Of a stretch of 64,000 nt of DNA, positions 8,591 through 24,457 are shown piece by piece. This stretch comes from Flavihumibacter rivuli (lineage in GTDB: Bacteria; Bacteroidota; Bacteroidia; Chitinophagales; Chitinophagaceae). The notes below the pieces were generated by a model that was not told the DNA's origin, searched no databases, and was given only the letters and a program-made list of their open reading frames with translations. The stretch is from contig NZ_CP092334.1 in NCBI RefSeq assembly GCF_018595685.2, positions 3,748,001 through 3,812,000 on the forward strand, written 5' to 3'. The translations under genes and the position numbers were made by a program. Each line of letters starts with the position of its first letter. The first letter of the stretch is position 1.

Positions 8591-10813
8591 TCAGTCGATA
8601 TCCAGTTTGGCGGTAAGCTTTTCCAGTTCAATACTCAACAGGTTGATGTATTCGAACTGGTCAGCTATTGTTTTGAGGTCGGAAAGGCGTTGCCGGGTAT
8701 TGGTTTCGAGGGCGCCACTGGCCAGTTCCCTGGAACGTTGTTCCAGTAAGAGTTTCAGCTCTTCGCGGATAACAAAGTTGGCTTCATTGTCTGCAGGGGT
8801 AATCTTGCCCTTTCCCTCGTCCAGGTACTGTGCAGCCGTATCCATATGCAGCAGGGAGGCATTGATGATAGGCCTGAAATTCTCACTCTTGTATGCCTCT
8901 GCCAGCTTCCTGTAGGAGGATAGGGTGGCAATATGTGATGCCAGTACATGGTTCGATACCACCAGCTGGTGTAGCACCTGGGCCTTCTTTTGGTAGCGGC
9001 GCGGTTCGTTCAACATGCGTTGGAATGCATCTGAAAGGTTCGCCAGGCTTACCAGTGCTTCCTTCCTGTGCAGCTTATACTCTGTGTTGCTGAGGGTTTC
9101 GCCGAGGAAGGGCCGGGTGATGAAACGAAAATAGGTGGCATTGGCCCTGATGGTGTTTTTCAGAAGGTCCATGATCTGCTCCTGTTCCCATTTCGGCGGG
9201 ATGGCGAAGGTGGCGATAAAAGCGATCGCTGAGCCGGCAAGGGTGTCCAGCAGCCTGTCCCGTAACACTTCAGTAAAGTCGCCGGGTTTTAGGAAATGGA
9301 AGGCGATCAGGATGTATACCGTCATGCCGATCACGCAAAGCAGGTATTGCACCCTGATCAGGCTATAAGCGATGATCATTCCCATGATCATCAGTCCAAC
9401 CAGCACCCTGTCATCCTTGATGAAATAGAGGATGAGCGCGCCTGCCACTGCCCCAATGAAGGTGCCGGACAAACGTTCAATATTGCGCTGTTTGGTGAGG
9501 CTATAGGCAGGTTTAAGGATCACGATGATGGTGAGCAGGATCCAGTAGCCATGGCCAACATTCAATAGCCTTGACAGGAAAAAACCGGCGAGCAGGGATA
9601 GGCTTACCCTGATGGTATGCCTGAAAATATTGGAATCGATACTCAGGTTGGTGATGAATAATTTCAGGTTGAAGTCGGATGGGGAAACAAACTTATTATA
9701 ATCCACCTGCCTGCTGAAGGTGTCACCCACCTGTTTGTCAAAGCTGGTGTACCGGTGAAGGGTGGTGATCCTGCCATGCAGGTCCTGGATACTGTCGAGG
9801 ATATGCCGAAGGCTGATGAAAGCTTCCAGGTTGGTCTCATTCATTACCTTTTCCCTTCTCTCCTGGAATTGCTGGCGCAGGGATTGAATGGCTTCCGTTA
9901 TTCCCGTGTCCGGCCTGGATCGGCGTCCTTCCTGTAATGCCAGGCCGATCTCTTCCGTATCGTTGGCCAGCCGAAGGATCAGGTCCCGGGCGTTTTGCAG
10001 CAGGCCGGATTCGTCAAGTTGCTCATGCAGTACCCTGTAATCCTGTTGGGAGGTCATGATCCTTTCCAGGAGGTCTACGCTATCCAGGAAAACCATGGTT
10101 AGGATCCTTCCGGTATGGGTAGACTCCTTGACGATCGCCCTGGTCTTGAACAACATTTCCCTCACCAGGCTTTGTTTATTATGGACCTGTACCTGCTGCT
10201 CCATCAGGAGGTTGTAGGTCCTGGTATAGTCTACTTCCGTTTCATAAAAGCCAGCGCGCATCCTGAAGTATTCGGCAGTGGAAATAAGGGCATCGCCCAG
10301 GGCCTGTTGTACCAGCTTATAGGGGCGAAGCCGGTAAAGGGTGAGACTTAGGATCATGTACCATATTCCACCTGCACTTATGAACAGCCCATTCCTCAAT
10401 ATTTCTTCCAGTGAAGCCCTTTCATCAATACTCAATACCATTACCAACAAGCCGGCTCCACCCACAGCATTGGCCCTTAAACCATAAACGCCCACCATGG
10501 AAAACAGGAAGCCCGCGGTGGCGATCAGCAGGGCCAGCAAGCCGGGAACGGAAAGGCTGATACCGGTTATGACAGAGGTGAGGAATACAAGGATGATGGC
10601 AGCTGTCATGCCATTGATGCGGTGGTGGATGGGTCCGGCATTATCGGTGAGGCCAACGCAAAGGGCGCCAAGGGCCATGGCAACACCGGTCTGCAACTGG
10701 TCAAAATAATTGGCAATCAGGACAGGTGTCATCACTCCCGCAGTCAGCCTGACCCCTTCATAGAGATAATAGCTGCTGCTGAATTTTTTAAAGGCCTTGA
10801 TATAATCGATCAT
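8591..10813 (-). CDS. FUSC family (YccS/YhfK-like) inner-membrane protein
   Basis: 740 residues from ATG 10813 (MIDYIKAFKKFSSSYYLYEG). This start lies seven bases after a TATTTTTG box; a start seven codons upstream would overlap the promoter. Two repeats of about six transmembrane segments (residues about 25-165 and 385-520), each followed by a long soluble helical region, give the YccS layout; the second set includes the FUSC-like stretch GYWILLTIIVILKPAYSLTK. Members are related to aromatic-acid efflux pumps (AaeB) and fusaric acid resistance proteins, but the function of YccS itself is not established. It stands alone, with its own promoter and a shared terminator. Confidence 0.82.
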   Translation of the reverse strand: MIDYIKAFKKFSSSYYLYEGVRLTAGVMTPVLIANYFDQLQTGVAMALGALCVGLTDNAGPIHHRINGMTAAIILVFLTSVITGISLSVPGLLALLIATAGFLFSMVGVYGLRANAVGGAGLLVMVLSIDERASLEEILRNGLFISAGGIWYMILSLTLYRLRPYKLVQQALGDALISTAEYFRMRAGFYETEVDYTRTYNLLMEQQVQVHNKQSLVREMLFKTRAIVKESTHTGRILTMVFLDSVDLLERIMTSQQDYRVLHEQLDESGLLQNARDLILRLANDTEEIGLALQEGRRSRPDTGITEAIQSLRQQFQERREKVMNETNLEAFISLRHILDSIQDLHGRITTLHRYTSFDKQVGDTFSRQVDYNKFVSPSDFNLKLFITNLSIDSNIFRHTIRVSLSLLAGFFLSRLLNVGHGYWILLTIIVILKPAYSLTKQRNIERLSGTFIGAVAGALILYFIKDDRVLVGLMIMGMIIAYSLIRVQYLLCVIGMTVYILIAFHFLKPGDFTEVLRDRLLDTLAGSAIAFIATFAIPPKWEQEQIMDLLKNTIRANATYFRFITRPFLGETLSNTEYKLHRKEALVSLANLSDAFQRMLNEPRRYQKKAQVLHQLVVSNHVLASHIATLSSYRKLAEAYKSENFRPIINASLLHMDTAAQYLDEGKGKITPADNEANFVIREELKLLLEQRSRELASGALETNTRQRLSDLKTIADQFEYINLLSIELEKLTAKLDID

Positions 10814-10820
10814 CCAGGCC

Positions 10821-10828
10821 CAAAAATA
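10821..10828 (-). promoter_or_regulatory. -7 element TATTTTTG for the FUSC gene
   Basis: Exact TAnnTTTG on the minus strand, seven bases upstream of the ATG at 10813, giving at most a very short 5' leader. Confidence 0.6.
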
Positions 10829-11164
10829 CGGCATACCCTAAACTTGAGGGAGGGTCTTTTCGTGCATACCCAGCCGTTAGGTGTCCCGGCATGGCAGGAT
10901 TTCCCGATCAGGGAACTTGGGTATTTTGCAGGTGACTGGTATGCATTTTTCCTGTCCTTGTTCAGTTGGGATGGCCATACTGCCCGACCGGAAAGGGCTT
11001 TCCAGGCCGGCTTGGCAACAATGATTAAGTTGTTGTTTGTCAATAGGCTATAATTCTTTTACCGGTTGGCCAGAAGCCCCAGGTGCTCCATGGGTTTGTG
11101 AAAGTCGGTTTGCCCGGGCCTTTCTCCCCTGATTTTTCCTCCTGAAAATTTTTTAAGGGGGGTA
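10829..11164. other. Gene-free region upstream of the polysaccharide operon, no gene recognised
   Basis: No reading frame here has a recognisable protein or a start with promoter support. An inverted repeat TGCATACC (10863-10870) / GGTATGCA (10938-10945) encloses about 67 bases. A CCCCT/AGGGG pair around 11117-11155 with T-rich sequence could be weak structure. No known riboswitch was recognised. The rest looks like plain spacer. Confidence 0.4.
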
Positions 11165-11198
11165 TTGCAAGATCAAAAACTGCGATATACTTTTGATC
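11165..11198 (+). promoter_or_regulatory. Consensus Bacteroidota promoter with overlapping inverted repeat, for the exopolysaccharide operon
   Basis: TTG at 11165-11167, then 20 bases, then TACTTTTG at 11188-11195: the best full -33/-7 promoter in the window. A perfect 8-base inverted repeat, GATCAAAA (11171-11178) and TTTTGATC (11191-11198), covers the spacer and the -7 box, so a dimeric regulator bound there would block or direct transcription. Transcription would start near 11199, leaving a leader of about 270 bases before the first gene at 11473. Confidence 0.6.
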
Positions 11199-11266
11199 CA
11201 GATTCCAATCTATCCTACCTCATCCGAGGTTTGAATGCCATCACTTGTTGATCATCTGGTATCCCC

Positions 11267-11466
11267 CCAATCGTTAATCCCTTTAAATCGTACCCAGTGA
11301 TGGAAACTATTACCACACCCCAAAGTGCCGACCGCGCACGAGCTTTTCCCAATCATTACAGTTGCCCAAATCTTAATTCTCCCCTGGCTGCATAACCGCC
11401 AGCAGGACCTGTTGTTTGATCCCCAGAGCCAATGGCTCACTATTACCAATCATTACCCTTTAAATC
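11267..11466 (+). repeat. Repeated motif in the leader of the exopolysaccharide operon
   Basis: Two near-identical copies of about 21-23 bases at 11267-11289 and 11446-11466 share CCAATC(G/A)TTA followed by CCCTTTAAATC, and a half copy CCCAATCATTAC lies at 11348-11359. CTATTACCA also occurs twice (11307-11315 and 11440-11448). The last copy ends six bases before the first start codon. Could be binding sites for a regulator or an mRNA-level element; neither is shown. Confidence 0.5.
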
Positions 11467-11472
11467 TATTGT

Positions 11473-11868
11473 ATGTACTTCGCTAAGAAAGCCCTCCTCA
11501 TCAATGATGATCAGCAGTTGCTGAACGCCATGGCAACTATCCTCCGTAATGAAAACTTTGAAGTTGTTACCGCCCTTGGTGGTAAGCAGGGCCTGATGGC
11601 CATCCGTGAGGCTTCTTTTGACCTTGTGATCACAGATATTACCATGTCCTACTGCAGCGGCTTTGAGCTCATCGCTGAAACCAAGGAAAATGCGGATACT
11701 AAGGATACCTCAATCTTCGTTATATCATCGATAGGGAATGAATCCACTATTGCAGAATGTTTTGAAATGGGGGTGGATGCCTACATCCAGAAGCCCTTTG
11801 TTCCAAAATCATTCCTGTACAATATCAACCGAATCCTATTCGATAAAGCCTATGCACTCGCTAGTTGA
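11473..11868 (+). CDS. Receiver-domain response regulator without output domain
   Basis: 131 residues forming one CheY-like receiver: acidic pair Asp12-Asp13, phosphoacceptor Asp55 in DLVITDITMS, and Lys107 in QKPF. The usual Thr/Ser after beta4 is Ser85 or Ser86 (VISS). There is no DNA-binding or enzymatic domain, so it must act through a partner protein. It is the first gene of a five-gene operon and overlaps the HEAT-repeat gene by 17 bases, which suggests translational coupling. In this setting it may switch polysaccharide synthesis on or off by binding the HEAT protein or the GT2 synthase, in place of the c-di-GMP control used by Proteobacteria. That role is inference; no kinase gene is adjacent. 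Confidence 0.88.
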   Translation: MYFAKKALLINDDQQLLNAMATILRNENFEVVTALGGKQGLMAIREASFDLVITDITMSYCSGFELIAETKENADTKDTSIFVISSIGNESTIAECFEMGVDAYIQKPFVPKSFLYNINRILFDKAYALAS

Positions 11869-12979
11869 GTTTTACCTCGCCCTTCCAATCGTTATCCGGT
11901 TGGTTTTGGCCTTTAGTGTCCTTTTTGTAGCCCTGGCTATATTCCTTTTTATAAGGATGATGGCTTGGAAAAGCAGGACATTGAAAAAGGAACAAAGGGA
12001 AGCCTTGCTTAGCCAGCAAATTGACCAGGTCCTCACCGAGCAAATCATTGCCAGGACCGATTGGTCACAGCACAATGCTGATGTTGGCTTGCTCAGTTGT
12101 GTTCAGCAGCTGAGGTCGCTTCCCCTTCGCCAACCATTGGTCAGGGATGTGCTGGCCAAAAGACTGATCCATAACAAGCACAATTTCTCTGGTGAGATCA
12201 ATGAAATGCTCACCAGGGTTTACCTGATGCTTGGACTCCATAAAGAAAGCCTGGCCGATGTAGTGTCAAAGCATCGCAAGGTTAGGCTGGCAGCCATGCA
12301 TGAACTGTACATGATGGATATTAAAGTGGATGAGTCCATCGTTCAGCCCTTATTGTTCCATAAGGATGAACTTACCCGCAAGTATGCCCGGTGTTTCCTG
12401 ATCAAGCATGCTCCATCTGCTTCTTTCGAGTTCCTGGACCAGGTAAAGGACCAGTTCCTTCCCTGGGAACAATATGAATTGCATGCCATTATGGCTCGGC
12501 GCGATTGCCTGGATGTGCCTTTGTTTGCCCAATGGATCCGTTCCGACCTGAATCCGGGTGTTGTTTCCTTTAGTATTAAGATGGCTGTTCATTTCAAACA
12601 GCATGATGCCATTCCCGTCCTGATCAGGTTGCTGGAAGAAGGATCTCAGGAATTGAGGAAGGAAGCGATCGTTGCATTGGGAAGATTCAAATCATTGGAG
12701 GCTGAGGAAGCATTGGTGTTGAGGTATGCTAGTGAATCCATTCCCGTTAAGCTGGAGATCCTGAAGGCACTTGGCAGGATTGCCTCAGGAAGGTGTATCC
12801 ATTTCCTGGCGAATGTATTTTATGGCGCCACAAGTGTAGACATCAAGAAATCGGCTATGCGTTCCCTCGTGGAGCAAGGACGCCAGGCGGCATCAGTTAT
12901 TGAAGACATGATCGCTGAGGCAAAGGGTATTGACAAGTTAGTGATCCAACAATCCATTCATCCTATAAGTAAACACTAA
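11852..12979 (+). CDS. Membrane-anchored HEAT-repeat protein of the exopolysaccharide operon
   Basis: 375 residues from ATG 11852 (MHSLVEFYLALPIVIRLVLA); upstream in-frame codons lie deep inside the previous gene. A single N-terminal transmembrane helix (about 8-34) is followed by a charged linker and a long all-helical domain. HEAT_2-type repeats are clearest near the C-terminus, for example HDAIPVLIRLLEEGSQELRK followed by EAIVALGRFKS. The topology places the solenoid in the cytoplasm. It overlaps the receiver gene and its stop shares one base with the start of the GT2 gene, so all three are probably made together. Likely a scaffold between receiver and synthase; no enzymatic motif is visible. 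Confidence 0.75.
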   Translation: MHSLVEFYLALPIVIRLVLAFSVLFVALAIFLFIRMMAWKSRTLKKEQREALLSQQIDQVLTEQIIARTDWSQHNADVGLLSCVQQLRSLPLRQPLVRDVLAKRLIHNKHNFSGEINEMLTRVYLMLGLHKESLADVVSKHRKVRLAAMHELYMMDIKVDESIVQPLLFHKDELTRKYARCFLIKHAPSASFEFLDQVKDQFLPWEQYELHAIMARRDCLDVPLFAQWIRSDLNPGVVSFSIKMAVHFKQHDAIPVLIRLLEEGSQELRKEAIVALGRFKSLEAEEALVLRYASESIPVKLEILKALGRIASGRCIHFLANVFYGATSVDIKKSAMRSLVEQGRQAASVIEDMIAEAKGIDKLVIQQSIHPISKH

Positions 12980-14433
12980 TGAATTATTCTTTTTGGGATC
13001 CTGTGATCTGGGCATTTGACCTGGGGATCTTATTTTATTCAGTAGGACTGTTTTCCTTGTACCTGATGCTGGCCTTACTTGCCTATAAAGGTATCCGCCG
13101 CAACAGGGAAAGAAATAAATTGAGACTGGAGACTATCCTGGAGAAGTCGCCCCTTACTCCGGGTATTTCCATTGTTGCCCCTGCCTTCAATGAAGGGCCC
13201 ACTATCATTGCCAATGTGCGGTCTTTGCTTACACTGAACTATCCCAGGTTCGAGGTGATCATTGTAAATGATGGTTCCACAGACGATACTCTTGATAAAC
13301 TGATCAATGAGTTCAAATTGGTCCGCCACGATATTCCTTACGAATCAAAAGTGCCTTCCCAACCCATTCGCTGTTTCTTCAAGTCCACCAGCATGGCGTA
13401 TAGCAATCTCATTGTCGTGGACAAGGTAAACGGCAAGTCGAAAGCAGATGCCGTCAATGCAGGTATCAATATAGCCTCCTATCCTTATCTCCTCAATACT
13501 GATGTGGATTGTATCCTGGACAGGGACACCTTATTGAAGCTGGTCCAGCCTTTTATGGAAGACGGCAAACGGGTGATCGCTGTAGGTGCGGGCCTGAGGA
13601 TCGCTAATTCCTGTGAGGTAGACAGGGGAACCATGATGCAGGTGAAAGTGCCTGAAGGCATGATACCTCGTTTCCAGGAAGTGGAATATATCCGCTCTTT
13701 CGTGCTGGGTAAAGTTGGCTGGTCACAAATGAATGCCGTGCCTAATGTCTCCGGCGGCCTTGGCTTGTTTGATACGGATATCCTGATCAAGGCGGGTGGT
13801 TACGATCCCCGGTCATTTGGTGAGGATATGGACATGATCGTCAGAATGGCAAAGTATATGTGTGACAACAAACAAGACTACGCTATACGCTATGTGCCAC
13901 AGGCATTGTGTTGGACCGAAGCCCCCGACAACCTCAAGGTATTTGGACGCCAGCGTACCCGTTGGGCGCGGGGCTTGTTCCAGATCTTTGCCCAGCATGG
14001 TAAAATGCTGCTCCATCCGCGTTATAAGCGAATGGGCCTGATCACCTTTCCGTATAATTTCTTCTTTGAGTTGCTCGCCCCGATTATTGAGTTCCTGGGC
14101 CTGATCACCTATTTTGTATTGATTGCCACTGGCCAGATCAATTTTGTTCATGCAGGCATCCTGTTGGTGTTCGTGTATTCCTTCTCCGTGTTTATTACCC
14201 TGCTGAGTATTATGTATGACCAGTTCGCCATGAATAATTATTCCAGTCCCCGTGAGCTGGCGAAATTGTGCATGGCTGCTGTATTGGAACCATTCCTTTA
14301 CCATCCGCTGATCATATTCTTCTCCCTGAAAGGATACTTCAACCAACTGTTCGGCAGGCAACATGCCTGGGGGAATATGCAACGGAAGGGATTCAGGCAA
14401 CAGGCAGATCAGCCAAGTGTAATTATCAGATAA
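12979..14433 (+). CDS. Processive family 2 glycosyltransferase (polysaccharide synthase)
   Basis: 484 residues. An N-terminal membrane helix (about 17-37), a cytoplasmic GT-A domain, then several C-terminal membrane helices (about 350-440). Synthase residues are all present: Asp98 in VNDGSTDD, Asp175-Val-Asp177 in NTDVDC, the acid Glu282-Asp283 in FGEDMD, and Gln325-Arg-Thr-Arg-Trp329, the QxxRW motif of processive enzymes such as PgaC/IcaA, BcsA and HasA. It should polymerise a nucleotide-sugar into a beta-linked chain and push it across the inner membrane. The sugar cannot be read from sequence. ATGA overlap with the HEAT gene upstream; the outer-membrane gene starts 11 bases downstream. 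Confidence 0.9.
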   Translation: MNYSFWDPVIWAFDLGILFYSVGLFSLYLMLALLAYKGIRRNRERNKLRLETILEKSPLTPGISIVAPAFNEGPTIIANVRSLLTLNYPRFEVIIVNDGSTDDTLDKLINEFKLVRHDIPYESKVPSQPIRCFFKSTSMAYSNLIVVDKVNGKSKADAVNAGINIASYPYLLNTDVDCILDRDTLLKLVQPFMEDGKRVIAVGAGLRIANSCEVDRGTMMQVKVPEGMIPRFQEVEYIRSFVLGKVGWSQMNAVPNVSGGLGLFDTDILIKAGGYDPRSFGEDMDMIVRMAKYMCDNKQDYAIRYVPQALCWTEAPDNLKVFGRQRTRWARGLFQIFAQHGKMLLHPRYKRMGLITFPYNFFFELLAPIIEFLGLITYFVLIATGQINFVHAGILLVFVYSFSVFITLLSIMYDQFAMNNYSSPRELAKLCMAAVLEPFLYHPLIIFFSLKGYFNQLFGRQHAWGNMQRKGFRQQADQPSVIIR

Positions 14434-14444
14434 ATCCAATTGTG

Positions 14445-16358
14445 ATGAATATCCTGGAAAAAGCTAAGCTTATTGTTATGCTCTCCATACCGGCTGCGGT
14501 TTTACTGAGCCAGCCTTCCAGCGCACAGGACAGGCGCACCAGTTCGGATGATTTGTTGAAAATGGCGCTGCATGAGGCCAATACCTTGGGCAATACAGCC
14601 AAGGCGATCGAATTATGCAAGCGCGCACTAAGGCAGAGCCCCGATTATGCAGATGTGCACCAGTTGCTGGGGAAGCTCTACCGGGTATCAGGTGAAACCG
14701 ATCTTAGCAGGCAGGAGTACCTCCTCTTGCTTAAGAAGAACCCACGTGATACCGACGCTCTCATCAGCCTCTTTAACCTTGAATCTGAAGCGAAGCGCTA
14801 TGATGCTGCACTTGCTTACCTTAACCAGGCCCTGCAGGTTCAGCCGGGCAAAGAGGATTTCCTCTTCAGGAAGGCTTACTTGCTGGAGGAAATGAAGCAA
14901 TTGGATGAAGCTGTTTTGTTGTCCGAAAGTTTATACAAGCAATTTCCCGGCAATAAGAAATATACAACCATGTACTGCGACCAACTGTTTCAGTTGTCCA
15001 GGGAGCAGGCGAGAACGGGGAATACCGAAAATGCGATCCGAGGTTTGCAACGACTGTTGGCAGTTGATCCACAGCACCGGGATGCTTTGGTCGCATTGGT
15101 AAATCATTACTATACGAGCGGGCAGCTTGACCAGGCGATCAGGTATTGTGAACTGGGCCTGGCTGCCAATCCTGTTGATTCTGTCTTCCTGTTGAAGCAG
15201 TCGGCCTTCCTGTTGGAATCCGGCAAGCCTGCACAGGCTATTGATGCATCCGGCCTTTTGGCAAGGTCCTATCCGGACAATGAGCGTTTCGCCCAAATCT
15301 ATTATGACCAGTTGTTGGGTTATGGTGTAGGGTTGATGAAGCAGGATAGTATCAAGCCGGCCTCAGCGGTATGGGCAAGGATGCATACCGATTTTCCAAA
15401 GGATACTGCCGCATTGCAATACCTTTCTGCTAACATGATCCAGGAGAAGCATTACGATTCTGCACTGGGTTATATTGAGAAAGGTCTTTTGCTCATGCCT
15501 GCTTCCTATAAGTTCCAGAGCATGAAAACCGAGGCACTGGAAGCCAAGGGTGAATATGCCAAAGCTTACCAATCTGCCCGGCAAATGCTGCAATCCAATC
15601 CCGGCGATGTGAAGTTGCGCTCCTATGTTAATTACCTGCAGTACAAAAGCAAGCGCAACCAAATTGGGGTCATGCACCTGCAGAGCATTTACGATAATGA
15701 TATCCCTACGGCCAGTATCACCACTTTACAATACCTGCGCTTCCATAAGAAAGGAAGTATTGGGGGAAGGATAAACTTTGCCGATCGTAATAACCAGCAA
15801 GGTGTGCAGTTTGAGCTGGAGAGTTACCTGAAACACAACCAGTACCTGTATTCTTACATGGTGGCAGGATGGGCAACCAATGATGTATTGCCACAATGGC
15901 GAGCAGGTTATTCCCTCTTCAAAAACCTGGGTAAGAATTGGGAAGGTGAATTGGGTGCGCGGTACCTGTATGCCGGCGGTGAGAATGTTTGGTCGGGTGT
16001 TTGGTCAGCCAGCAAGACATGGAAAAAGAACTGGACCAACTTCCGTGGGTTTATCATTAATGATGCAGGGGAGTGGTATCATGCCTATACCCTGACCAGC
16101 AGGTTCTTCCTCAAAAAACCTAATGAATATGTCTCCTTTATTGGAGGATTGGGAACCAGCCCCGATGACAGGAGCCGTAACTACCAGATCAATAATCTCC
16201 TTGGGTTCCTTGCCCATTCGGCGGGTATGGGTATCCAGAAGACCATCAAAACCAACACAATTGTAAACCTAACCGGGGTTTGGACCAACCAGCGGATTGC
16301 GGAAAAGCAGAGCTATAACCAGTATGATATTACTTTCACCCTCTTGCAAATGTTCTAA
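14445..16358 (+). CDS. TPR protein with C-terminal YaiO-type outer-membrane beta-barrel
   Basis: 637 residues from ATG 14445; the frame is open far upstream but only this ATG opens a signal peptide (ending PSSAQ). Residues about 35-430 hold tandem tetratricopeptide repeats (for instance AKAIELCKRALRQSPDYADV and YDAALAYLNQALQVQPGKED). The last 210 residues alternate as beta strands and end in aromatic Phe, as barrel proteins do, resembling the YaiO family. TPR plus barrel is the architecture of PgaA, which guides and exports poly-GlcNAc through the outer membrane. It follows the GT2 synthase by 11 bases. Export role is inferred from architecture and position. Confidence 0.82.
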   Translation: MNILEKAKLIVMLSIPAAVLLSQPSSAQDRRTSSDDLLKMALHEANTLGNTAKAIELCKRALRQSPDYADVHQLLGKLYRVSGETDLSRQEYLLLLKKNPRDTDALISLFNLESEAKRYDAALAYLNQALQVQPGKEDFLFRKAYLLEEMKQLDEAVLLSESLYKQFPGNKKYTTMYCDQLFQLSREQARTGNTENAIRGLQRLLAVDPQHRDALVALVNHYYTSGQLDQAIRYCELGLAANPVDSVFLLKQSAFLLESGKPAQAIDASGLLARSYPDNERFAQIYYDQLLGYGVGLMKQDSIKPASAVWARMHTDFPKDTAALQYLSANMIQEKHYDSALGYIEKGLLLMPASYKFQSMKTEALEAKGEYAKAYQSARQMLQSNPGDVKLRSYVNYLQYKSKRNQIGVMHLQSIYDNDIPTASITTLQYLRFHKKGSIGGRINFADRNNQQGVQFELESYLKHNQYLYSYMVAGWATNDVLPQWRAGYSLFKNLGKNWEGELGARYLYAGGENVWSGVWSASKTWKKNWTNFRGFIINDAGEWYHAYTLTSRFFLKKPNEYVSFIGGLGTSPDDRSRNYQINNLLGFLAHSAGMGIQKTIKTNTIVNLTGVWTNQRIAEKQSYNQYDITFTLLQMF

Positions 16359-16381
16359 TTTGCCGGGTATCCAAGTTGGTT

Positions 16382-18625
16382 ATGTATCTAAAGTTCCTCG
16401 CGCTGATCATGGTAATGATGACTGCTGGTTATGCCTACTCCCAAAACCTCCTTCTCGCAGAAGGGAAAAAAACTGGTTTCGGGTTGGTGTTGCCGGAGCG
16501 CCCAACTGCATATGAAGAAAAGGCTGCTAAGGTTTTTGCTGACTATTTCCAAAAGGTGACCGGGGCTTCCATTCCAATGGTCCCCAAAAAGCAGCACCAT
16601 CAGGCCATGGTCATCAGTATTGGCCATACCAAATACCTGGATAATCCCAGCACTTTCTCAACTCCAGAGTCTTTTCGCATCAGGACAAAGCCTGGAAGGT
16701 TATTGATCGAAGGCGAAGGAAGGGGAGTGGTGTTTGCGGTCTATCATTTTATTGAACAATACCTCGGATGCCGGAAGTATGACCAGGGACCTGCGTTGGT
16801 AATGCCCAAGGATAAGCTTGAATTAACAGCCGGCCTGGATATACGAGAATCACCTGCATTTATCTACCGGGAAGCCTATTTCCCGATCATGGCAGATGAG
16901 GAATACCGCGATTGGCATCGCCTCCATCGCCTTGATGACCATTGGGGCTTATGGGGCCATAGTTTTGAACAACTTCTCCCTGCAGCAGACTATTTCAGGG
17001 ATCATCCGGAATATTTTGCCCTGACAGGTAAGGGACGCAATCCCGCACAACTTTGCTTGTCTAACGAAGCTGTTTTCAGGATTATTAAGAAAGTACTCGC
17101 CGAAAGAATCGCTGCCTGGCCTGATGCCAGGTATTGGTCTATCAGTCCCAATGATTCACCGATCTATTGCGAGTGTGAACAATGTAGTAAAACCGATGCA
17201 AAAGAGGGAGGCCCGCAGGGGTCATTAGTGAACTTTGTGAATCGTCTGGCGGCTGCCTTTCCCGGGCATCAGTTCTCCACACTGGCCTATACGTATAGCG
17301 CCCATCCCACCCGGCAACTCAAACCGGCAAGGAATGTTTCCATCATGCTAAGCAGCATTGACGCTTTGAGGACCTATCCCTTTTACCAGGAACCAACTGC
17401 CCGGCCTTTCTGCAAGGACCTGGAAGGTTGGAAGGAAAAGACACCTAATATTTTTGTCTGGGATTACTGCACCCAGTTCACCAACTACCTCTCACCATTT
17501 CCGAACCTTTACTGTTTGCAACCCAATTATAAGTACCTGCAGGAGAAAGGTGTGAAAGGCGTTTTCGCACAGGGCAGCGGGGCCGATCATAGTGACCTGG
17601 CCGAATTAAAGGCCTATTTGATCGCGAGGCTGTTATGGCAGCCCAGTGTCCTGGTTGATTCCATCGTACATGATTTCCTGGAGGGCTACTATGGCAAGGC
17701 TGGTTTATTCATCCAGCAATACCTCGAGCAAATGGATAATGCCCTCATTGAGACGAAGGCCGCGCTTGATATCTACGGTAACCCGGTGAATGAGGTCGGC
17801 AGGTTCCTCTCCCCGGCCAGAATGGAAGACTATAGTCATATCCTTGATAAGGCAGAGGCAGCAGTAGAACAGGAGCCCCAGCATTTGGAAAGGGTATTGA
17901 GACTGAGGCTGTCTCTGGATTACGCTTCCTTCCAGCAGGCGCGTTTCTATGGGCGGGAAAAGCATGGCATCTTCCAAAAGGCAACTGGCGGTGAGTGGCA
18001 GGTAAGGGAAGGATTCAGGGACAGGTATGATAAGTTCATCAAAAGATGTGGGGCAGAAGGAGTGAGTATGATGAATGAGGACGGCAAGGATTTGCAAGCC
18101 TACCAAAGGGAATGGTCTTCCATTTTCAATGGTGGGGTCAGGCCCAACCTTGCCTACCGGGCAGGAGTGCAACTGGAGCGTCCCCATATTCCGGATTATG
18201 CAGCTGCCAGTGCCGGGATATTGGTAGATGGCAATAATGGTTTTGATGATTTCAGTTACAACTGGCTTTGCTTCAATAATGAACCACTCCAGGCGACCCT
18301 CGATATGGGTGAAGTGAAAACAGTGGATCGTATTGCCCTTGGTTTTCTCGAAGATCCCAGGCATTGGTTCTTCCTTCCTTCAACCATCTCGGTTTGGGTT
18401 TCGGTCAATGGAAAGGACTTCGAACCGGCAGGTGAAATGAAGCATGGACTTCCCGAGCAGGAGGGCTATGCAATAAGGCGGAAGGAAGTACAGTTCTCCT
18501 TAAAGGAAAGCGTGCCAGCCAGGTACGTAAAAGTGATCGCCCTGCCCCAGCCTGAACTGCCCATTTGGCGCCAGCACAAAAAACGCAAGGCGATGCTGGC
18601 TTGCGATGAGGTATGGGTTAATTAA
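16382..18625 (+). CDS. Exported DUF4838 glycosidase-like protein with C-terminal discoidin-like domain
   Basis: 747 residues from ATG 16382, which opens a signal peptide (ending AYAYSQ). Residues about 30-140 resemble the alpha-glucuronidase/GH20 N-terminal alpha-beta domain (VVFAVYHFIEQYLGCRKY). Residues about 180-460 form the DUF4838 domain with its typical SPNDSPIYCECEQC segment and VWDYC. The last 150 residues look like an F5/8 type C (discoidin) carbohydrate-binding sandwich (ARYVKVIALP). DUF4838 is a TIM-barrel family linked to polysaccharide breakdown but without an assigned reaction. As fifth gene of the operon it occupies the place that a processing hydrolase or deacetylase takes in Pga/Pel/Alg systems, so it may trim the exported polymer. 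Confidence 0.8.
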   Translation: MYLKFLALIMVMMTAGYAYSQNLLLAEGKKTGFGLVLPERPTAYEEKAAKVFADYFQKVTGASIPMVPKKQHHQAMVISIGHTKYLDNPSTFSTPESFRIRTKPGRLLIEGEGRGVVFAVYHFIEQYLGCRKYDQGPALVMPKDKLELTAGLDIRESPAFIYREAYFPIMADEEYRDWHRLHRLDDHWGLWGHSFEQLLPAADYFRDHPEYFALTGKGRNPAQLCLSNEAVFRIIKKVLAERIAAWPDARYWSISPNDSPIYCECEQCSKTDAKEGGPQGSLVNFVNRLAAAFPGHQFSTLAYTYSAHPTRQLKPARNVSIMLSSIDALRTYPFYQEPTARPFCKDLEGWKEKTPNIFVWDYCTQFTNYLSPFPNLYCLQPNYKYLQEKGVKGVFAQGSGADHSDLAELKAYLIARLLWQPSVLVDSIVHDFLEGYYGKAGLFIQQYLEQMDNALIETKAALDIYGNPVNEVGRFLSPARMEDYSHILDKAEAAVEQEPQHLERVLRLRLSLDYASFQQARFYGREKHGIFQKATGGEWQVREGFRDRYDKFIKRCGAEGVSMMNEDGKDLQAYQREWSSIFNGGVRPNLAYRAGVQLERPHIPDYAAASAGILVDGNNGFDDFSYNWLCFNNEPLQATLDMGEVKTVDRIALGFLEDPRHWFFLPSTISVWVSVNGKDFEPAGEMKHGLPEQEGYAIRRKEVQFSLKESVPARYVKVIALPQPELPIWRQHKKRKAMLACDEVWVN

Positions 18626-18645: not shown

Positions 18646-19893
18646 TTATAAGGTGCCGATGACGGTTGCAATGGCAAATGCCAATACCGAGACGATCAGT
18701 CCATACATGAAGATATTGTATGAGATCCTGAGGTAGTGGTATTTTTTGGCCAACACCTTTCCCAGGTAATAGATATCCTTGATCATGCTGCCATAGAGAT
18801 AATCTGAGTCGTTCATCATCTCCTTCATGGCCCATTCATAATCCGGTAATTCCATTTTGAAGAAGTTTCCAAAGAACAAAAGGTTGATCTTCTTCATCCG
18901 GATATCTTCCTGTGTAAAATATCCTTTGTTGACATTGGGCCTTGTCGCCCTAATGGCAAAGATCACTGCACTCAGGCAGACGGTAGCCAGGAGACTGGTG
19001 GGTATGATGAACTGGGGATAATATTGCAGTTTTCCCAGCAGTACGGAAACCAGGATGGACAATACAATGGTGTTTACTGATATCATGATATTGGCCTTTG
19101 AATCTGCCATCTGGCTAAGGCTTACATGATTGTCACTCATGATCCTGAACATGGTGGCGATACCCCTTTCTGTCCTCGATTCTTTCTTTTGCTTGGGTTT
19201 ATTGTCCGGGCCATTGCTATCGGGGCTCTTTCCCAGTGCCTCAATGACCTCTGCTGTTTTCTCGGGATTGTATTCAGGCAACTTCCCGGCTGTTACTGCT
19301 TCATTCTTTTCAACCAATCGCTTCAGGTGTTCCTGCTTCACCGGCTCCAGGTGGGTGCGTGCATATTCCGTGAAGTAGGAGTGTTTTTGCAGGAAGGCAA
19401 TATTGTTTTTTCGCCAGTCCTTTTTACTGATATCCTTACCAAAGACCAGTATCCACTCCTTCCTTAATAGTTTGTGTTCTGTAGAAAATTCAGTAGTGCC
19501 CAGGTGATAGAGGTCGGCGTCGCAAATGATCTCCTCGATGGTTGATTTTGGCGACTGCGGCATTTGGGTGGCCAGGATGCAGGCGCTAACCTTGTCGATC
19601 AGCGGATCAGGAATATTCCTGGCATGCAGGAATGCCCTCGCGATTTCCACGCTTGCCTGTTCATGGCCTTCATATTGGCGGCTATAGCCGGTATCATGGA
19701 ACCAGGCGGCCAACATCAATGCGGTCCTGTCTTCCTCTGTCAAAGTGTAATGGGATGCAATGGTACGGGCAGCCTCTACCACCCCTACAGTGTGGTGGAG
19801 GTCATGGAATTGATAGGCTGATGGTACCTGGTCATTGAACAATTGCTTTACGTACTGCTCAGCCAATGCAATTAAGGAGTGATTTGCTTCCAT
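18646..19893 (-). CDS. HD phosphohydrolase domain fused to a Pycsar-effector-like (DUF5706) membrane domain
   Basis: 415 residues. The N-terminal 200 residues form an HD domain with metal ligands His34, His66-Asp67, His77 and Asp125/Asp127 (AAWFHDTGYSRQYEGHEQA). After a charged linker (about 215-240), residues 243-415 match the Pycsar effector family: MSDNHVSLSQMADSKANIM then helices 269-287, 295-315 and 392-412. Known Pycsar effectors of this type (PycTM) damage the membrane when a phage-triggered cyclase makes cCMP or cUMP. Here no cyclase gene is adjacent; the HD domain could degrade the signal nucleotide in cis. HD-DUF5706 fusions occur in Bacteroidota, often alone, so defence is only a possibility. 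Convergent with the DUF4838 gene (20-base gap). Confidence 0.8.
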   Translation of the reverse strand: MEANHSLIALAEQYVKQLFNDQVPSAYQFHDLHHTVGVVEAARTIASHYTLTEEDRTALMLAAWFHDTGYSRQYEGHEQASVEIARAFLHARNIPDPLIDKVSACILATQMPQSPKSTIEEIICDADLYHLGTTEFSTEHKLLRKEWILVFGKDISKKDWRKNNIAFLQKHSYFTEYARTHLEPVKQEHLKRLVEKNEAVTAGKLPEYNPEKTAEVIEALGKSPDSNGPDNKPKQKKESRTERGIATMFRIMSDNHVSLSQMADSKANIMISVNTIVLSILVSVLLGKLQYYPQFIIPTSLLATVCLSAVIFAIRATRPNVNKGYFTQEDIRMKKINLLFFGNFFKMELPDYEWAMKEMMNDSDYLYGSMIKDIYYLGKVLAKKYHYLRISYNIFMYGLIVSVLAFAIATVIGTL

Positions 19894-20806: not shown

Positions 20807-23800
20807 ATGAATGGTAAGGGTCGATGTAATTTATGGTATTGGTTAATAGTTCCCCTGCTATTGCTTTCTCCTTTTCTTTCCTTTGGGCAACAGGATAGTG
20901 TGGTGCAAAGGATCGTATTGGTTGGCGATGCCGGCGCGCTGGTCAAGGATGAACAACCTGTCATTACAGCCCTTGAGCAATCAGGACTTTTGCAACAACC
21001 GAATACTTCACTGATCTACCTGGGTGATAATATTTATCCCCTCGGGCTTCCGCCGATGAGTGATAAATCCTACGGCAGCAAGGAGCAAATATTGATCTGG
21101 CAGGCACTGGTCAGCAAACTTCCTGCTACCCAGGTATTCTTCGTGCCGGGTAACCATGATTGGGCAAAGGGCCGTTCCTATGGCGCACAGCAAGTCAACC
21201 GCCAGGCCAACCTCATCCGGTCCCTCCGGGATAGCTCCATTCGTTTCTTTCCTTCACCGGGTTGCCCCGGACCCGAAGTGGTGGAATTGTCTTCACAGGT
21301 TGCAGTGGTTTTCATGGATAGCCAATGGTGGCTGCAACAGGAAAATCGTCCGGGTTCCGAAAGCGATTGTGATTGCCAGTCGGAGGATGATGTTGCCTTG
21401 CGTTTGCAGGAGCTGGTATATCACTACCGTAATAAACTCTTGTTGTTCGTTACCCACCACCCCTTTCAATCCTATGGCATCCATGGGGGCTATTACAGGT
21501 TCAAGCAACATTTGTTTCCCCTCACCGACGCTTCCCCTAACGCTTATCTTCCGCTTCCATTGATTGGCTCCTTGTACCCTTTGGTAAGGGGTGGCTTCGG
21601 AAACATCCAGGACCTCAAGCATCCTTTGTATAAAGAGATGGTCCAAAGGATGGATACTATATTATCCACCCATCCTAATTGTCTCCGGCTGGCAGGCCAT
21701 GAACATAGCCTTCAGCATATCGAGAAGAATGGCCAGCATTATATTGTTAGCGGGGCAGGCATCCACCAGACCAGGGTCAGGAAGGGTGAGCATGCCCTTT
21801 TTGTAGATGAAGGACTTGGTTTTGGCGTGATCGAAGTGAGGAGCAATGGGAAGGTTGATCTTTCCTTTTATCGTCCCGGCATCCGGGAGCCATTGTACCA
21901 TGCAGGTCTTGCTGACCTGCCCCTCTATGTAAAAGATACCGTTCAGCAGGAAACTGTTCTCTTTCCCGATTCGATCGTAACAGTACCTGCGCCTTATTAT
22001 TCTGCGGGCAAGTTCAAGTCCCGCCTGCTGGGTGCCAATTACCGCAGCGAATGGTCGACACCCGTGAAGGTCCCGGTTTTGGATATAGGTCGTGAGAAAG
22101 GCGGGTTGGTCACCGGCCAGCGCGGCGGGGGCTTTCAATCCCGTTCCCTCCGGTTGATGGATAGTGCCGGTCGGGAGTATGTTATCCGCAGCATTGAAAA
22201 GTATCCCGATAAAACCCTGCCTGAAGAGTTCCGCCGCACTTTTGTAAAGGATGTGGTTACGGATGGAATCTCTGCGTCTTATCCGTTTGCGGCCCTTTCT
22301 GTTCCGGACTTTGCCAGGGCATTAGGCATACCCTATCTTCCGCCCCGGCTGGTTTATGTTCCGGACGACCCGCGTCTTGGTCCCAACAGAAAGGATTTTG
22401 CCGGTCATCTCTACCTTTTTGAGCCCCGTGAGCCGGAAGGTATGAAGAAGACCTATAGTTCCAGCAAGGTTATCGCTTCCATCGAAGAAGACAATGATAA
22501 CCTGGTTGACCAGCAGGCTGTATTGAAGGCCCGCTTATTGGATATGTTCCTCATGGATTTTGACCGGCATGAGGACCAATGGCGCTGGGGTGTACGGGGG
22601 GAGAAGGGAATGAAGGTCTATTTTCCGATCCCCAGGGACCGGGACCAGGTATTCTTTACCAACCAGGGAATTTTCCCAAGGATGTTCAGCCGGGATTGGG
22701 TGCAGCCCAAATTCCAGGGCTTCAGGGCCAGGGCAAGGAATATCAATACCTTTAATTTCAACGCCCGGTTCTTTGATCGCTCCTTCCTGAATGCGGTTGG
22801 CGAAAAGGATTGGAGAAAGGCTGTTGCCGACTTCCTGCCTGTTATAACAGATAGCCTTATTGACCAGGCTTTACTCCGCCAACCCAAAGAGATCAGCAGC
22901 CAGGCTGCTCCGGGCATTGCTGCAACCTTAAGGGAAAGGCGCCAATACTTTGAACAGGAAATGCTGGACTATTACCGCTTTCTCTCGAGGTCAGTCAGCA
23001 TTGCCGGCTCCGACAAACGGGAATGGTTTGAATTGGTTCGTAACGCCGATGGCAAGTTGCGGGTCAGGGTCTATCCGATCAGTAAATCCGGAAAGAAGAA
23101 GGATGCCATTTATGACCGGGAATTTGACCCTTCTGTCACCAGGGAAGTGAGGCTCTACGGCCTGGCTGGTGCAGACCATTTCCATCTCAGCGGCGATTTG
23201 TCTGCCGGGCCACTGGTACGCATTATCGGTGGCGGCGGCAGGGATACGGTAATAACAGCATTGGAGGGTAGTGGCCCAACCAAGGCCATTGCCTATATCA
23301 ACAAAAAGGACTCTGCGGTGGTAGATGGCGACAAAGGCCTGAGGGTAAAGCGCGTTGGGGCCTGGTTTCCCATGGACTTTGATCGTCGCACCTTTAAATA
23401 CAATGTTACTGCGCCACTGGTTTCCGTGGCCATTAACCCTGATGATGGCCTGTTCCTTGGTCTTGGCTTTAAGGCTACCCGGCATGCTTTCGCCAAGGAA
23501 CCCTTTAGTGCCCAGCACCAATTGCGCGGCAGCTATGCTGTTGCCACCGGGGCCTATAATTTTAACTACCGGCTGGACCTGGTGGACCTTATCGGCCGCC
23601 TCGACCTACGATTGCTGGCCAATTTCAGGGCGCCCAATAACACCCAGAACTTTTTTGGCTTTGGCAATGGTACCCAGTTCCCCAATAAGGGCAGCCAGAA
23701 AATTGACTATTACCGAAGCCGCTTTAATATCGTGGAAGGCGGCGCTTTGCTAAAGGCTGATCCCAGCCCTTCATTTTCCCTGCTGACCGGGCCTGTCTTC

Positions 23801-24457
23801 CAGCATTACTGGATCGATAGTACAGATAACAGGGGAAGGTTCATTACCAGTCCCGAAAGCGGCCTGGACCAGGTATCCCTGTACCGGCCCAAGACCTATA
23901 TGGGTTGGCAATTTCAGGCGGTGGTGGACAACCGGAACAATAAGGTGATACCGACGCGGGGGCTTTATTGGAATACCTTTATGAGATGGCTGGGAGGCTT
24001 GAACAAGGAAGCCTATGCTTTTGCCTATGGCCGTACGGACCTGAGCTGTTACACCAGTTTCAATGCAAAAGGGAACCTGGTCATAGCCGTGAGGTTAGGA
24101 GGCGGGTTCAATGCCGGGACTTATGAGTTTTTCAATGCCCAATACCTTGGAGGGCATGACAACCTGCGGGGTTTCAGGAAGTTTCGCTTTGCCGGGGAAA
24201 ACCAGTTTTACAATAATATAGACCTTCGCCTTAGGCTGGCGGACCTCAGGGGCTATATCCTTCCCCTGGCTACCGGCCTGGTATTATTCCATGATATCGG
24301 CCGTGTATGGTATCCCGGTGAATCATCCGGTATCTGGCACCGTGGGTATGGAGCAGGCTTGTGGTTTGCCCCTGCAGGCAGGTATGTTTTCACGGTCAGC
24401 TATGCGCTTTCAGATGACGGTGGCTTGCCTTTCCTATCCGCGGGTTTCCAGTTTTGA
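20807..24457 (+). CDS. Metallophosphoesterase fused to an Omp85/TamA-like outer-membrane beta-barrel
   Basis: 1216 residues with a signal peptide (ending FLSFG). Residues about 33-310 form a calcineurin-type metallophosphatase with every metal motif: Gly40-Asp41, Gly73-Asp74-Asn75, Gly115-Asn116-His117-Asp118, His217-His218 and Gly297-His298-Glu-His300. Residues about 370-800 are a mixed region with a kinase-like patch (LLDMFLMDFDRHEDQWRWG). The last 390 residues are a bacterial surface antigen (D15) barrel with the typical segment YLGGHDNLRGFRKFRFAG and terminal Phe. The enzyme is therefore probably held at the outer membrane facing the periplasm or outside. Substrate unknown; acid-phosphatase-like activity is a guess. 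Similar fusions exist in Bacteroidota but I know of no assigned role. Confidence 0.85.
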   Translation: MNGKGRCNLWYWLIVPLLLLSPFLSFGQQDSVVQRIVLVGDAGALVKDEQPVITALEQSGLLQQPNTSLIYLGDNIYPLGLPPMSDKSYGSKEQILIWQALVSKLPATQVFFVPGNHDWAKGRSYGAQQVNRQANLIRSLRDSSIRFFPSPGCPGPEVVELSSQVAVVFMDSQWWLQQENRPGSESDCDCQSEDDVALRLQELVYHYRNKLLLFVTHHPFQSYGIHGGYYRFKQHLFPLTDASPNAYLPLPLIGSLYPLVRGGFGNIQDLKHPLYKEMVQRMDTILSTHPNCLRLAGHEHSLQHIEKNGQHYIVSGAGIHQTRVRKGEHALFVDEGLGFGVIEVRSNGKVDLSFYRPGIREPLYHAGLADLPLYVKDTVQQETVLFPDSIVTVPAPYYSAGKFKSRLLGANYRSEWSTPVKVPVLDIGREKGGLVTGQRGGGFQSRSLRLMDSAGREYVIRSIEKYPDKTLPEEFRRTFVKDVVTDGISASYPFAALSVPDFARALGIPYLPPRLVYVPDDPRLGPNRKDFAGHLYLFEPREPEGMKKTYSSSKVIASIEEDNDNLVDQQAVLKARLLDMFLMDFDRHEDQWRWGVRGEKGMKVYFPIPRDRDQVFFTNQGIFPRMFSRDWVQPKFQGFRARARNINTFNFNARFFDRSFLNAVGEKDWRKAVADFLPVITDSLIDQALLRQPKEISSQAAPGIAATLRERRQYFEQEMLDYYRFLSRSVSIAGSDKREWFELVRNADGKLRVRVYPISKSGKKKDAIYDREFDPSVTREVRLYGLAGADHFHLSGDLSAGPLVRIIGGGGRDTVITALEGSGPTKAIAYINKKDSAVVDGDKGLRVKRVGAWFPMDFDRRTFKYNVTAPLVSVAINPDDGLFLGLGFKATRHAFAKEPFSAQHQLRGSYAVATGAYNFNYRLDLVDLIGRLDLRLLANFRAPNNTQNFFGFGNGTQFPNKGSQKIDYYRSRFNIVEGGALLKADPSPSFSLLTGPVFQHYWIDSTDNRGRFITSPESGLDQVSLYRPKTYMGWQFQAVVDNRNNKVIPTRGLYWNTFMRWLGGLNKEAYAFAYGRTDLSCYTSFNAKGNLVIAVRLGGGFNAGTYEFFNAQYLGGHDNLRGFRKFRFAGENQFYNNIDLRLRLADLRGYILPLATGLVLFHDIGRVWYPGESSGIWHRGYGAGLWFAPAGRYVFTVSYALSDDGGLPFLSAGFQF

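What the first reader, a model, noticed from the sequence alone, without database searches (positions are those of the whole stretch)
11165..18625. Five-gene receiver-HEAT-GT2-TPR/barrel-DUF4838 operon: probable undescribed synthase-dependent exopolysaccharide system
Seen: genes overlap by 17 bases and 1 base or are 11 and 23 bases apart, all on one strand behind a single full consensus promoter. Known: processive GT2 with QxxRW plus a TPR/beta-barrel exporter is the Pga architecture (PgaC, PgaA), and a secreted carbohydrate-active enzyme usually completes such systems. Inferred: the receiver and membrane HEAT solenoid replace the c-di-GMP/PilZ control and PgaD-type partner, and the DUF4838 protein replaces the deacetylase/hydrolase. 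I do not know a characterised system with this set.
Basis: partly seen in the sequence, partly recalled or inferred. Interest (0 to 1): 0.75.

Follow-up and report, generated by a model that had tools for sequence, protein, structure and literature searches.

The report
Receiver-controlled exopolysaccharide synthesis and export operon
Five neighbouring genes probably form a machine that makes a sugar polymer in the inner membrane, passes it through the outer membrane and trims it; it seems to be switched by a small phosphorylation-responsive protein through a membrane-anchored adaptor, and related gene sets turn up in several bacterial phyla.

Summary
In detail: five same-strand genes (receiver, membrane HEAT, GT2, TPR-YaiO barrel, DUF4838) lie at 11473-18625 with the stated overlaps and gaps. 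The promoter claim is weak: 5 such matches in 64 kb, about 3 expected. The arrangement is not accidental. HEAT precedes this GT2 as the next labelled same-strand gene in 200 of 227 loci, never the reverse. Strong HEAT matches occur in 90 of 98 YaiO genomes, 4 of 294 others. Three loci carry HEAT fused to GT2. Ten Bacillota loci have HEAT-GT2 and no YaiO, as expected of an outer-membrane exporter. DUF4838 is a variant-specific part: it follows 29 of 29 long TPR-YaiO genes in the unnamed-genome set. Its predicted fold is that of GH20/GH84/GH115 enzymes plus a CBM-like domain, with two near-invariant aspartates. The GT2 is not PgaC (131.6 bits; cut-off 422.3). Best reading: a new class of synthase-dependent exopolysaccharide system in which a phosphorylatable receiver acts through HEAT. 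No function, polymer or interaction was shown.

The parts
11165..11195 (+). possible Bacteroidota-type promoter TTG-N20-TACTTTTG; weak
   Evidence: sequence; 5 such matches in the window against 3.0 +/- 1.7 simulated
11473..11868 (+). single-domain response regulator (131 aa): acidic pair D12/D13, phosphoacceptor D55, K107
   Evidence: PF00072 2.1e-20; D55 in 121 of 127 and K107 in 123 of 127 aligned rows, the window being counted twice
11852..12979 (+). membrane-anchored HEAT-repeat protein (375 aa): N-terminal hydrophobic helix, then a HEAT solenoid, cytoplasmic side inferred
   Evidence: HEAT_2 8.1e-11; model pLDDT 90.9 with alphaRep-like solenoid; hydrophobic stretch in the first 90 residues of 190 of 201 HEAT proteins next to GT2
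12979..14433 (+). membrane GT2 polysaccharide synthase (484 aa): D98, D175xD177, E282-D283, Q325-R326-x-R328-W329
   Evidence: PF00535 4.6e-21; best NCBIfam TIGR03937 PgaC_IcaA 131.6 bits, cut-off 422.3; these residues invariant in 20 aligned sequences
14445..16358 (+). TPR + YaiO outer-membrane beta-barrel protein (637 aa), YaiO domain at about 15654-16169; shorter than the ~940-1010 aa relatives
   Evidence: PF19413 5.3e-42, TIGR04390 93.6 bits over cut-off 32, genome position; relatives
16382..18625 (+). DUF4838 protein (747 aa, hydrophobic signal-like N-terminus by eye): N-terminal alpha/beta domain, TIM barrel with D258 after strand 4 and D361 at the end of strand 7 (strand count mine), helical part, C-terminal CBM32/F5-8C-like domain (about 18140-18622)
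   Evidence: PF16126 6e-91; model pLDDT 91.0; PDB matches; conservation

Best explanation
The operon encodes a synthase-dependent exopolysaccharide machine. The GT2 builds and extrudes a polysaccharide through the inner membrane (inferred from its family). The membrane-anchored HEAT solenoid is a regulatory subunit of that GT2 (supported by fixed adjacency and three natural fusions; binding not shown). The single-domain receiver, phosphorylated by a kinase that is not next to it here, docks on the HEAT subunit and switches the synthase after translation (inferred). The TPR part of the YaiO protein guides the polymer to the YaiO outer-membrane barrel (inferred by analogy with PgaA, PMC9384988 abstract). 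The exported DUF4838 protein, a predicted glycoside hydrolase with a carbohydrate-binding-like domain, trims or edits the polymer during export (inferred).
For: HEAT precedes GT2 as the next labelled same-strand gene in 200 of 227 loci (201 pairs, 191 with a gap of at most 50 bases, 133 overlapping, 0 in the opposite order; 96 GT2 clusters at 70% identity). Strong HEAT matches in 90 of 98 YaiO genomes against 4 of 294 others. Of 133 YaiO loci with at least 14 kb, HEAT+GT2 lie near in 121 and a small receiver too in 111. HEAT-GT2 fusions in L270, L273, L294. Control: of 30 PgaC-like GT2 loci, HEAT lies within about 1.5 kb of 3, the same 3 whose GT2 scores E < 1e-200 with the profile of this GT2. 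44 chosen GT2s of this group and 17 controls lie on two sides of one branch, support 91/93. YaiO match in 0 of 10 Bacillota and 47 of 55 Bacteroidota named loci (grouped by record title). Receivers keep the phosphorylation residues; histidine kinases lie beside some loci (L077; L219, L276). DUF4838 directly follows 29 of 29 YaiO ORFs of 900 aa or more; its model has a GH fold with D258 in 160 of 160 and D361 in 159 of 160 rows. In an Elusimicrobia locus the ORF after GT2 holds a polysaccharide-deacetylase match.
Against: Nothing was tested biochemically; no polymer is known. The E threshold for a strong HEAT match (about 2e-18) was set after seeing the list; at E <= 0.001, 232 of 392 genomes have a match, many of them partial. 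In some loci outside Bacteroidota the receiver gene also holds GGDEF, so c-di-GMP may still act. 12 of 133 full YaiO loci lack the HEAT+GT2 pair, 7 of them lack every tested partner, and 12 of 159 stretches have no YaiO by my profile. The three same-genus genomes listed lack YaiO. Only 8 of 15 named loci outside Bacteroidota and Bacillota have a YaiO match, one on the other strand. Of 67 family genomes with DUF4838, 29 have it in this operon and 38 were not seen with it there (read). Genomes are related, so counts are not independent.
Confidence: 0.62

Rival explanations
1. It is a divergent Pga (poly-GlcNAc) system in which HEAT, YaiO and DUF4838 merely stand in for PgaD, PgaA and PgaB.
For: The best NCBIfam model for the GT2 is PgaC_IcaA (131.6 bits). 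TPR-barrel exporter. DUF4838 resembles hexosaminidase structures.
Against: GT2 and barrel miss the PgaC (422.3) and PgaA (366.65) cut-offs. The GT2 group separates from E. coli PgaC in the tree, though PgaC is on a long branch. No polysaccharide-deacetylase match in the five proteins.
Confidence: 0.15
2. The GT2 makes a glycolipid or glycoprotein precursor, and YaiO and DUF4838 have other roles, for example use of external glycans.
For: Membrane GT2s with similar motifs can be non-processive (recalled). DUF4838 also occurs away from the operon.
Against: QxxRW and the other synthase motifs; separation from other GT2s; YaiO tied to the same locus in Bacteroidota and absent from the 10 Bacillota loci; DUF4838 directly downstream in 29 of 29 long-YaiO loci.
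Confidence: 0.15
3. Receiver and HEAT do not control the synthase; they are a separate signalling or scaffold pair that is only co-transcribed.
For: No interaction was shown; HEAT proteins are generic scaffolds (recalled). 10 of 133 full loci have HEAT+GT2 without a small receiver nearby.
Against: HEAT-GT2 fusions and fixed order HEAT then GT2 in 96 sequence clusters. The link of the receiver to HEAT rests on adjacency alone.
Confidence: 0.15

Closest known systems
Pga/PNAG system of E. coli (pgaABCD, locus L297)
   Same: GT2 synthase, TPR-porin exporter and a periplasmic sugar-active enzyme in one operon; PgaA TPRs bind polymer and the processing enzyme (PMC9384988, abstract and outline seen).
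   Different: HEAT and a receiver gene in the operon, YaiO barrel, DUF4838 instead of PgaB; PgaC and PgaA cut-offs missed.
NfrA/NfrB N4-receptor glycan pathway (PMC8669472, passages seen; locus L298)
   Same: Glycosyltransferase plus TPR/beta-barrel outer-membrane protein proposed to make a surface glycan.
   Different: NfrB carries a C-terminal MshEN-like c-di-GMP domain; the GT2 here has only GT2 matches above cut-off and comes with receiver and HEAT.
E. coli yaiS-yaiP-yaiX-yaiO cluster (locus L296)
   Same: YaiO beside a putative glucosyltransferase.
   Different: No HEAT match in the 12-kb stretch and no receiver annotated there; has a putative deacetylase and an IS-interrupted acyltransferase gene; YaiP falls with the control GT2s, on a long branch.
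GH115, GH84 and GH20 glycoside hydrolases (family name of 6q63 recalled; PDB calls it beta-hexosaminidase)
   Different: The window protein has no Pfam match to those families at E <= 0.1; after strand 4 it has (N/E)-D followed by CxCxxC.

Membership tests
Pga/PNAG system | PgaC equivalog score (TIGR03937, 422.3 bits) | tested here: not met
   131.6 bits
Pga/PNAG system | PgaA equivalog score (TIGR03939, 366.65 bits) | tested here: not met
   47.4 bits, TPR part only
Pga/PNAG system | PgaB-type polysaccharide deacetylase in the locus | tested here: not met
   none among the Pfam matches of the five proteins and four neighbours
Cellulose synthase (Bcs) | BcsA-type synthase score (TIGR03030, 699.1 bits) | tested here: not met
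   42.7 bits
Cellulose synthase (Bcs) | PilZ domain on the synthase (recalled) | tested here: not met
   no PilZ match at E <= 0.1
Nfr pathway | c-di-GMP-binding domain on the synthase (PMC8669472 passages) | tested here: not met
   484-aa GT2 has only GT2 and chitin-synthase matches above cut-off
YaiO outer-membrane barrel family | PF19413 and TIGR04390 over cut-off | tested here: met
   144.2 bits over 23.9; 93.6 over 32
DUF4838 family | PF16126 over cut-off | tested here: met
   305.4 bits over 26.6
GH20, GH84 or GH115 | shared fold | tested here: met
   predicted model against PDB; fold only
GH20, GH84 or GH115 | catalytic residues of the family (recalled) | tested here: inconclusive
   D258 invariant after strand 4 but preceded by N (144), E (15) or Q (1) of 160; D361 at strand 7
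Single-domain response regulator | receiver with phosphoacceptor Asp and no output domain | tested here: met
   131 aa, PF00072 the only match over cut-off; D55 and K107 conserved
HEAT-linked GT2 synthase module (proposed here) | HEAT gene directly upstream of, or fused to, a GT2 of one group | tested here: met
HEAT-linked GT2 synthase module (proposed here) | receiver binds HEAT and HEAT binds GT2 | not testable with these tools
   needs complex prediction or biochemistry

The most novel reading that the evidence does not exclude
A cross-phylum class of polysaccharide synthases whose activity is gated by a phosphorylated receiver acting through a membrane HEAT-solenoid subunit, that is, direct phosphorelay control of polymer synthesis in place of, or layered on, c-di-GMP; diderms add the YaiO exporter and lineage-specific envelope enzymes (DUF4838, or a PF00884 domain fused to the synthase).
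Probability: 0.5. Interest if true: 0.8.

Novelty: new variant of a known kind. Interest (0 to 1): 0.62.

Why it matters
Many characterised synthase-dependent systems are controlled by c-di-GMP (recalled). A receiver-HEAT-synthase module seen in records titled Bacteroidota, Bacillota, Pseudomonadota, Gemmatimonadota, Myxococcota, Bdellovibrionota, Acidobacteriota, Elusimicrobiota and Spirochaetota would be a second general way to switch polymer synthesis, would give YaiO and DUF4838 a plausible role, and could explain how Bacteroidota regulate such synthases. It is directly testable by gene removal in laboratory Chitinophaga or Flavobacterium.

Tried and rejected

Papers: nine searches. Judged from listings and from passages of the opened ones, none describes this operon; lists were capped (40 of 41 shown; 15 of 44; 15 of 33; 15 of 38). 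Passages seen: PMC12419801, PMC3826837, PMC8594841 (yaiO only in a strain list), PMC10434189, PMC8669472; PMC7112194 holds none of the four terms asked; PMC9384988 abstract and outline. The one paper with DUF4838 (PMC9870897) was seen in the listing only. Most subscription papers and bioRxiv preprints are not in that library.

Rows dropped or doubled: 12 of 159 stretches (158 fetched plus the window) had no YaiO ORF by my profile and were left out of the 147-locus counts. The window is counted twice in the receiver alignment and in the DUF4838 alignment. Some named loci seem to be the same contigs as unnamed ones, judged by equal contig length (L216 and G507, L247 and G489, L251 and G142); the 96 clusters at 70% are the safer count.

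Full report
What is there. Domains: receiver, HEAT, GT2, TPR+YaiO barrel, DUF4838 with sub-threshold F5/8C matches at its end. The neighbours (FUSC-like 8591-10834, HD-PycTM 18646-19893) are on the other strand, which bounds the unit. The claimed promoter fits a Bacteroidota-type motif (recalled), but such matches number 5 in the window against 3.0 +/- 1.7 simulated.

Co-occurrence. YaiO (PF19413) occurs once in the own genome, in 98 of 392 genomes drawn from the phylum and in 61 of 194 of the family, 60 over the cut-off. The three same-genus genomes listed lack it, so the locus is patchy. I fetched 158 stretches around these hits and searched their ORFs, with the window, with profiles seeded from the window's proteins. 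147 of 159 have a YaiO ORF by my profile; the other 12 were dropped. Of 133 with at least 14 kb, HEAT and GT2 lie within 7 kb in 121, with a small receiver in 111; 7 have none of the tested partners; DUF4838 (E < 1e-30) is present in 40 of 147. The order receiver-HEAT-GT2(+GT2)-YaiO-DUF4838 among labelled genes of one strand is found in 25 of 147 including the window; a YaiO ORF of 900 aa or more is followed directly by DUF4838 in 29 of 29. In the named set 14 of 15 long YaiO ORFs pass a similar test; the fifteenth (L222) has DUF4838 in the same order but outside my distance limit. The window's YaiO protein is shorter (637 aa), and it has one GT2 where many relatives have two.

Specificity. 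A profile of 21 HEAT proteins (A1) was searched over the 392 genomes. 232 have some match at E <= 0.001, many of them partial. Strong matches (E up to about 2e-18, a line I drew after seeing the list) occur in 90 of 98 YaiO genomes and 4 of 294 others, Fisher p 1.7e-73. Genomes are related and A1 was built from YaiO-linked loci, so p is only a guide. As a control I took the 30 loci returned for PgaC-like GT2s in 60 genomes of the class, none of whose matches passes the PgaC cut-off: a HEAT match lies in 3 of these stretches (about 1.5 kb on each side), and these 3 are the ones whose GT2 scores E < 1e-200 with the profile of this GT2; the other 27 score 3e-64 or weaker. Of the own genome's 8 fetched GT2 loci only the window's has HEAT. 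In a tree of 44 chosen GT2s of this group and 17 control rows, the two sets lie on two sides of one branch, support 91/93, below the tree tool's stricter threshold.

Beyond Bacteroidota. A scan of named genomes with the GT2 alignment kept 80 loci out of 377 relatives, itself a capped list. HEAT is the preceding labelled gene in 73. Of the other 7, L275 has a HEAT ORF that my profile missed (P0163); L270, L273 and L294 carry an N-terminal TM+HEAT part fused to the GT2 (Pfam HEAT_2 above cut-off only in L273; profile of other HEAT partners E 1e-11 to 1e-14); L243, L264 and L265 have their GT2 within 450 bases of a contig end. Over both sets there are 201 HEAT-GT2 pairs in 200 of 227 loci, none reversed, 191 within 50 bases, 133 overlapping, 96 clusters at 70% identity. 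A YaiO match is found in 0 of 10 Bacillota, 47 of 55 Bacteroidota and 8 of 15 other loci, one of the 8 on the other strand (grouped by record title; L216 counted as Bacteroidota against its title). 9 of the 10 Bacillota loci have a receiver gene near; L288 has none by my profile. Of the receiver genes scanned outside Bacteroidota, GGDEF is present in 2 of 4 from Bacillota (L274, L281; not L284, L292), and in L277 (Gemmatimonadota) and L291 (Myxococcota), not in L282 (Acidobacteriota).

Parts. Receivers keep D55 (121 of 127 rows) and K107 (123 of 127); histidine kinases lie near some loci, for example L077, L219 (Chitinophaga sp. YR627) and L276. The HEAT model is confident (pLDDT 90.9): a long N-terminal helix with the hydrophobic stretch, then a solenoid like designed alphaRep proteins. 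The GT2 motifs are invariant in 20 sequences. DUF4838: model pLDDT 91.0; fold of GH20/GH115/GH84 enzymes with a CBM32-like C-terminus; W191, G192, H193, D258, C265, C268, Y303, W360, Y362 are 160 of 160, R163, C263 and D361 159 of 160, among 160 rows (120 database hits plus 40 locus ORFs, the window twice). In six proteins from other loci a PF00884 domain is fused to the GT2 (L103, L116, L183) or encoded beside YaiO (L100, L120, L205), another enzyme class that can decorate envelope polymers (recalled).

How it most likely works. Shown: gene order, domain families, predicted folds, conservation, fusions. Inferred: the GT2 polymerises and extrudes; HEAT is its subunit; the phosphorylated receiver acts on HEAT; YaiO exports; DUF4838 edits. 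The HEAT-GT2 fusions and the missing YaiO in Bacillota are the two observations that best separate this from chance neighbourhood. The receiver's action on HEAT is the least supported step.

Known or new. GT2 and barrel miss the Pga and Bcs equivalog cut-offs. The synthase lacks the NfrB-type c-di-GMP domain (NfrB from passages of PMC8669472). E. coli yaiO sits beside yaiP without HEAT. DUF4838 is mentioned in one paper of the library, seen in the listing only. I rate it a new variant of synthase-dependent exopolysaccharide systems, of possibly broad reach, with no function yet shown.

Noticed in passing
18646-19893 (-): HD-domain protein with a C-terminal Pycsar effector TM domain (PycTM, 1.7e-35), directly downstream on the other strand.
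   Followed up: no
20807-24457 (+): 1216-aa protein with a sub-threshold calcineurin-like phosphoesterase match and a C-terminal Omp85-type barrel.
   Followed up: no
11852-12979: A database gene model (P0122, 332 aa) starts after the TM helix of the HEAT protein; homologues with an N-terminal hydrophobic stretch support the upstream ATG, so automatic annotation may hide the membrane anchor.
   Followed up: partly
L103:9437-12874, L116:3903-7715, L183:9326-12862: GT2 fused to a PF00884 sulfatase/alkaline-phosphatase-superfamily domain; in L100, L120, L205 the domain is in a separate gene beside YaiO.
   Followed up: partly
L274:6127-7866, L281:6297-7925, L277:5881-7866, L291:5824-7758: Receiver gene upstream of HEAT also holds a GGDEF domain and two receivers, in some an HPt, hinting at c-di-GMP outside Bacteroidota.
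   Followed up: partly
L080:11227-11769, L094:11090-11614: DUF1573 gene follows DUF4838 in these loci; BLAST-similar ORFs sit in the same place in L085, L088, L092, L093.
   Followed up: no
DUF4838 residues 263-268 (17168-17185): CxCxxC motif conserved in nearly all of 160 rows, just after the putative catalytic Asp; metal site or disulfides unknown.
   Followed up: no
L216, L280: Records titled Beijerinckiaceae and Klebsiella pneumoniae (MAGs) carry loci whose content makes the names or binning doubtful.
   Followed up: no
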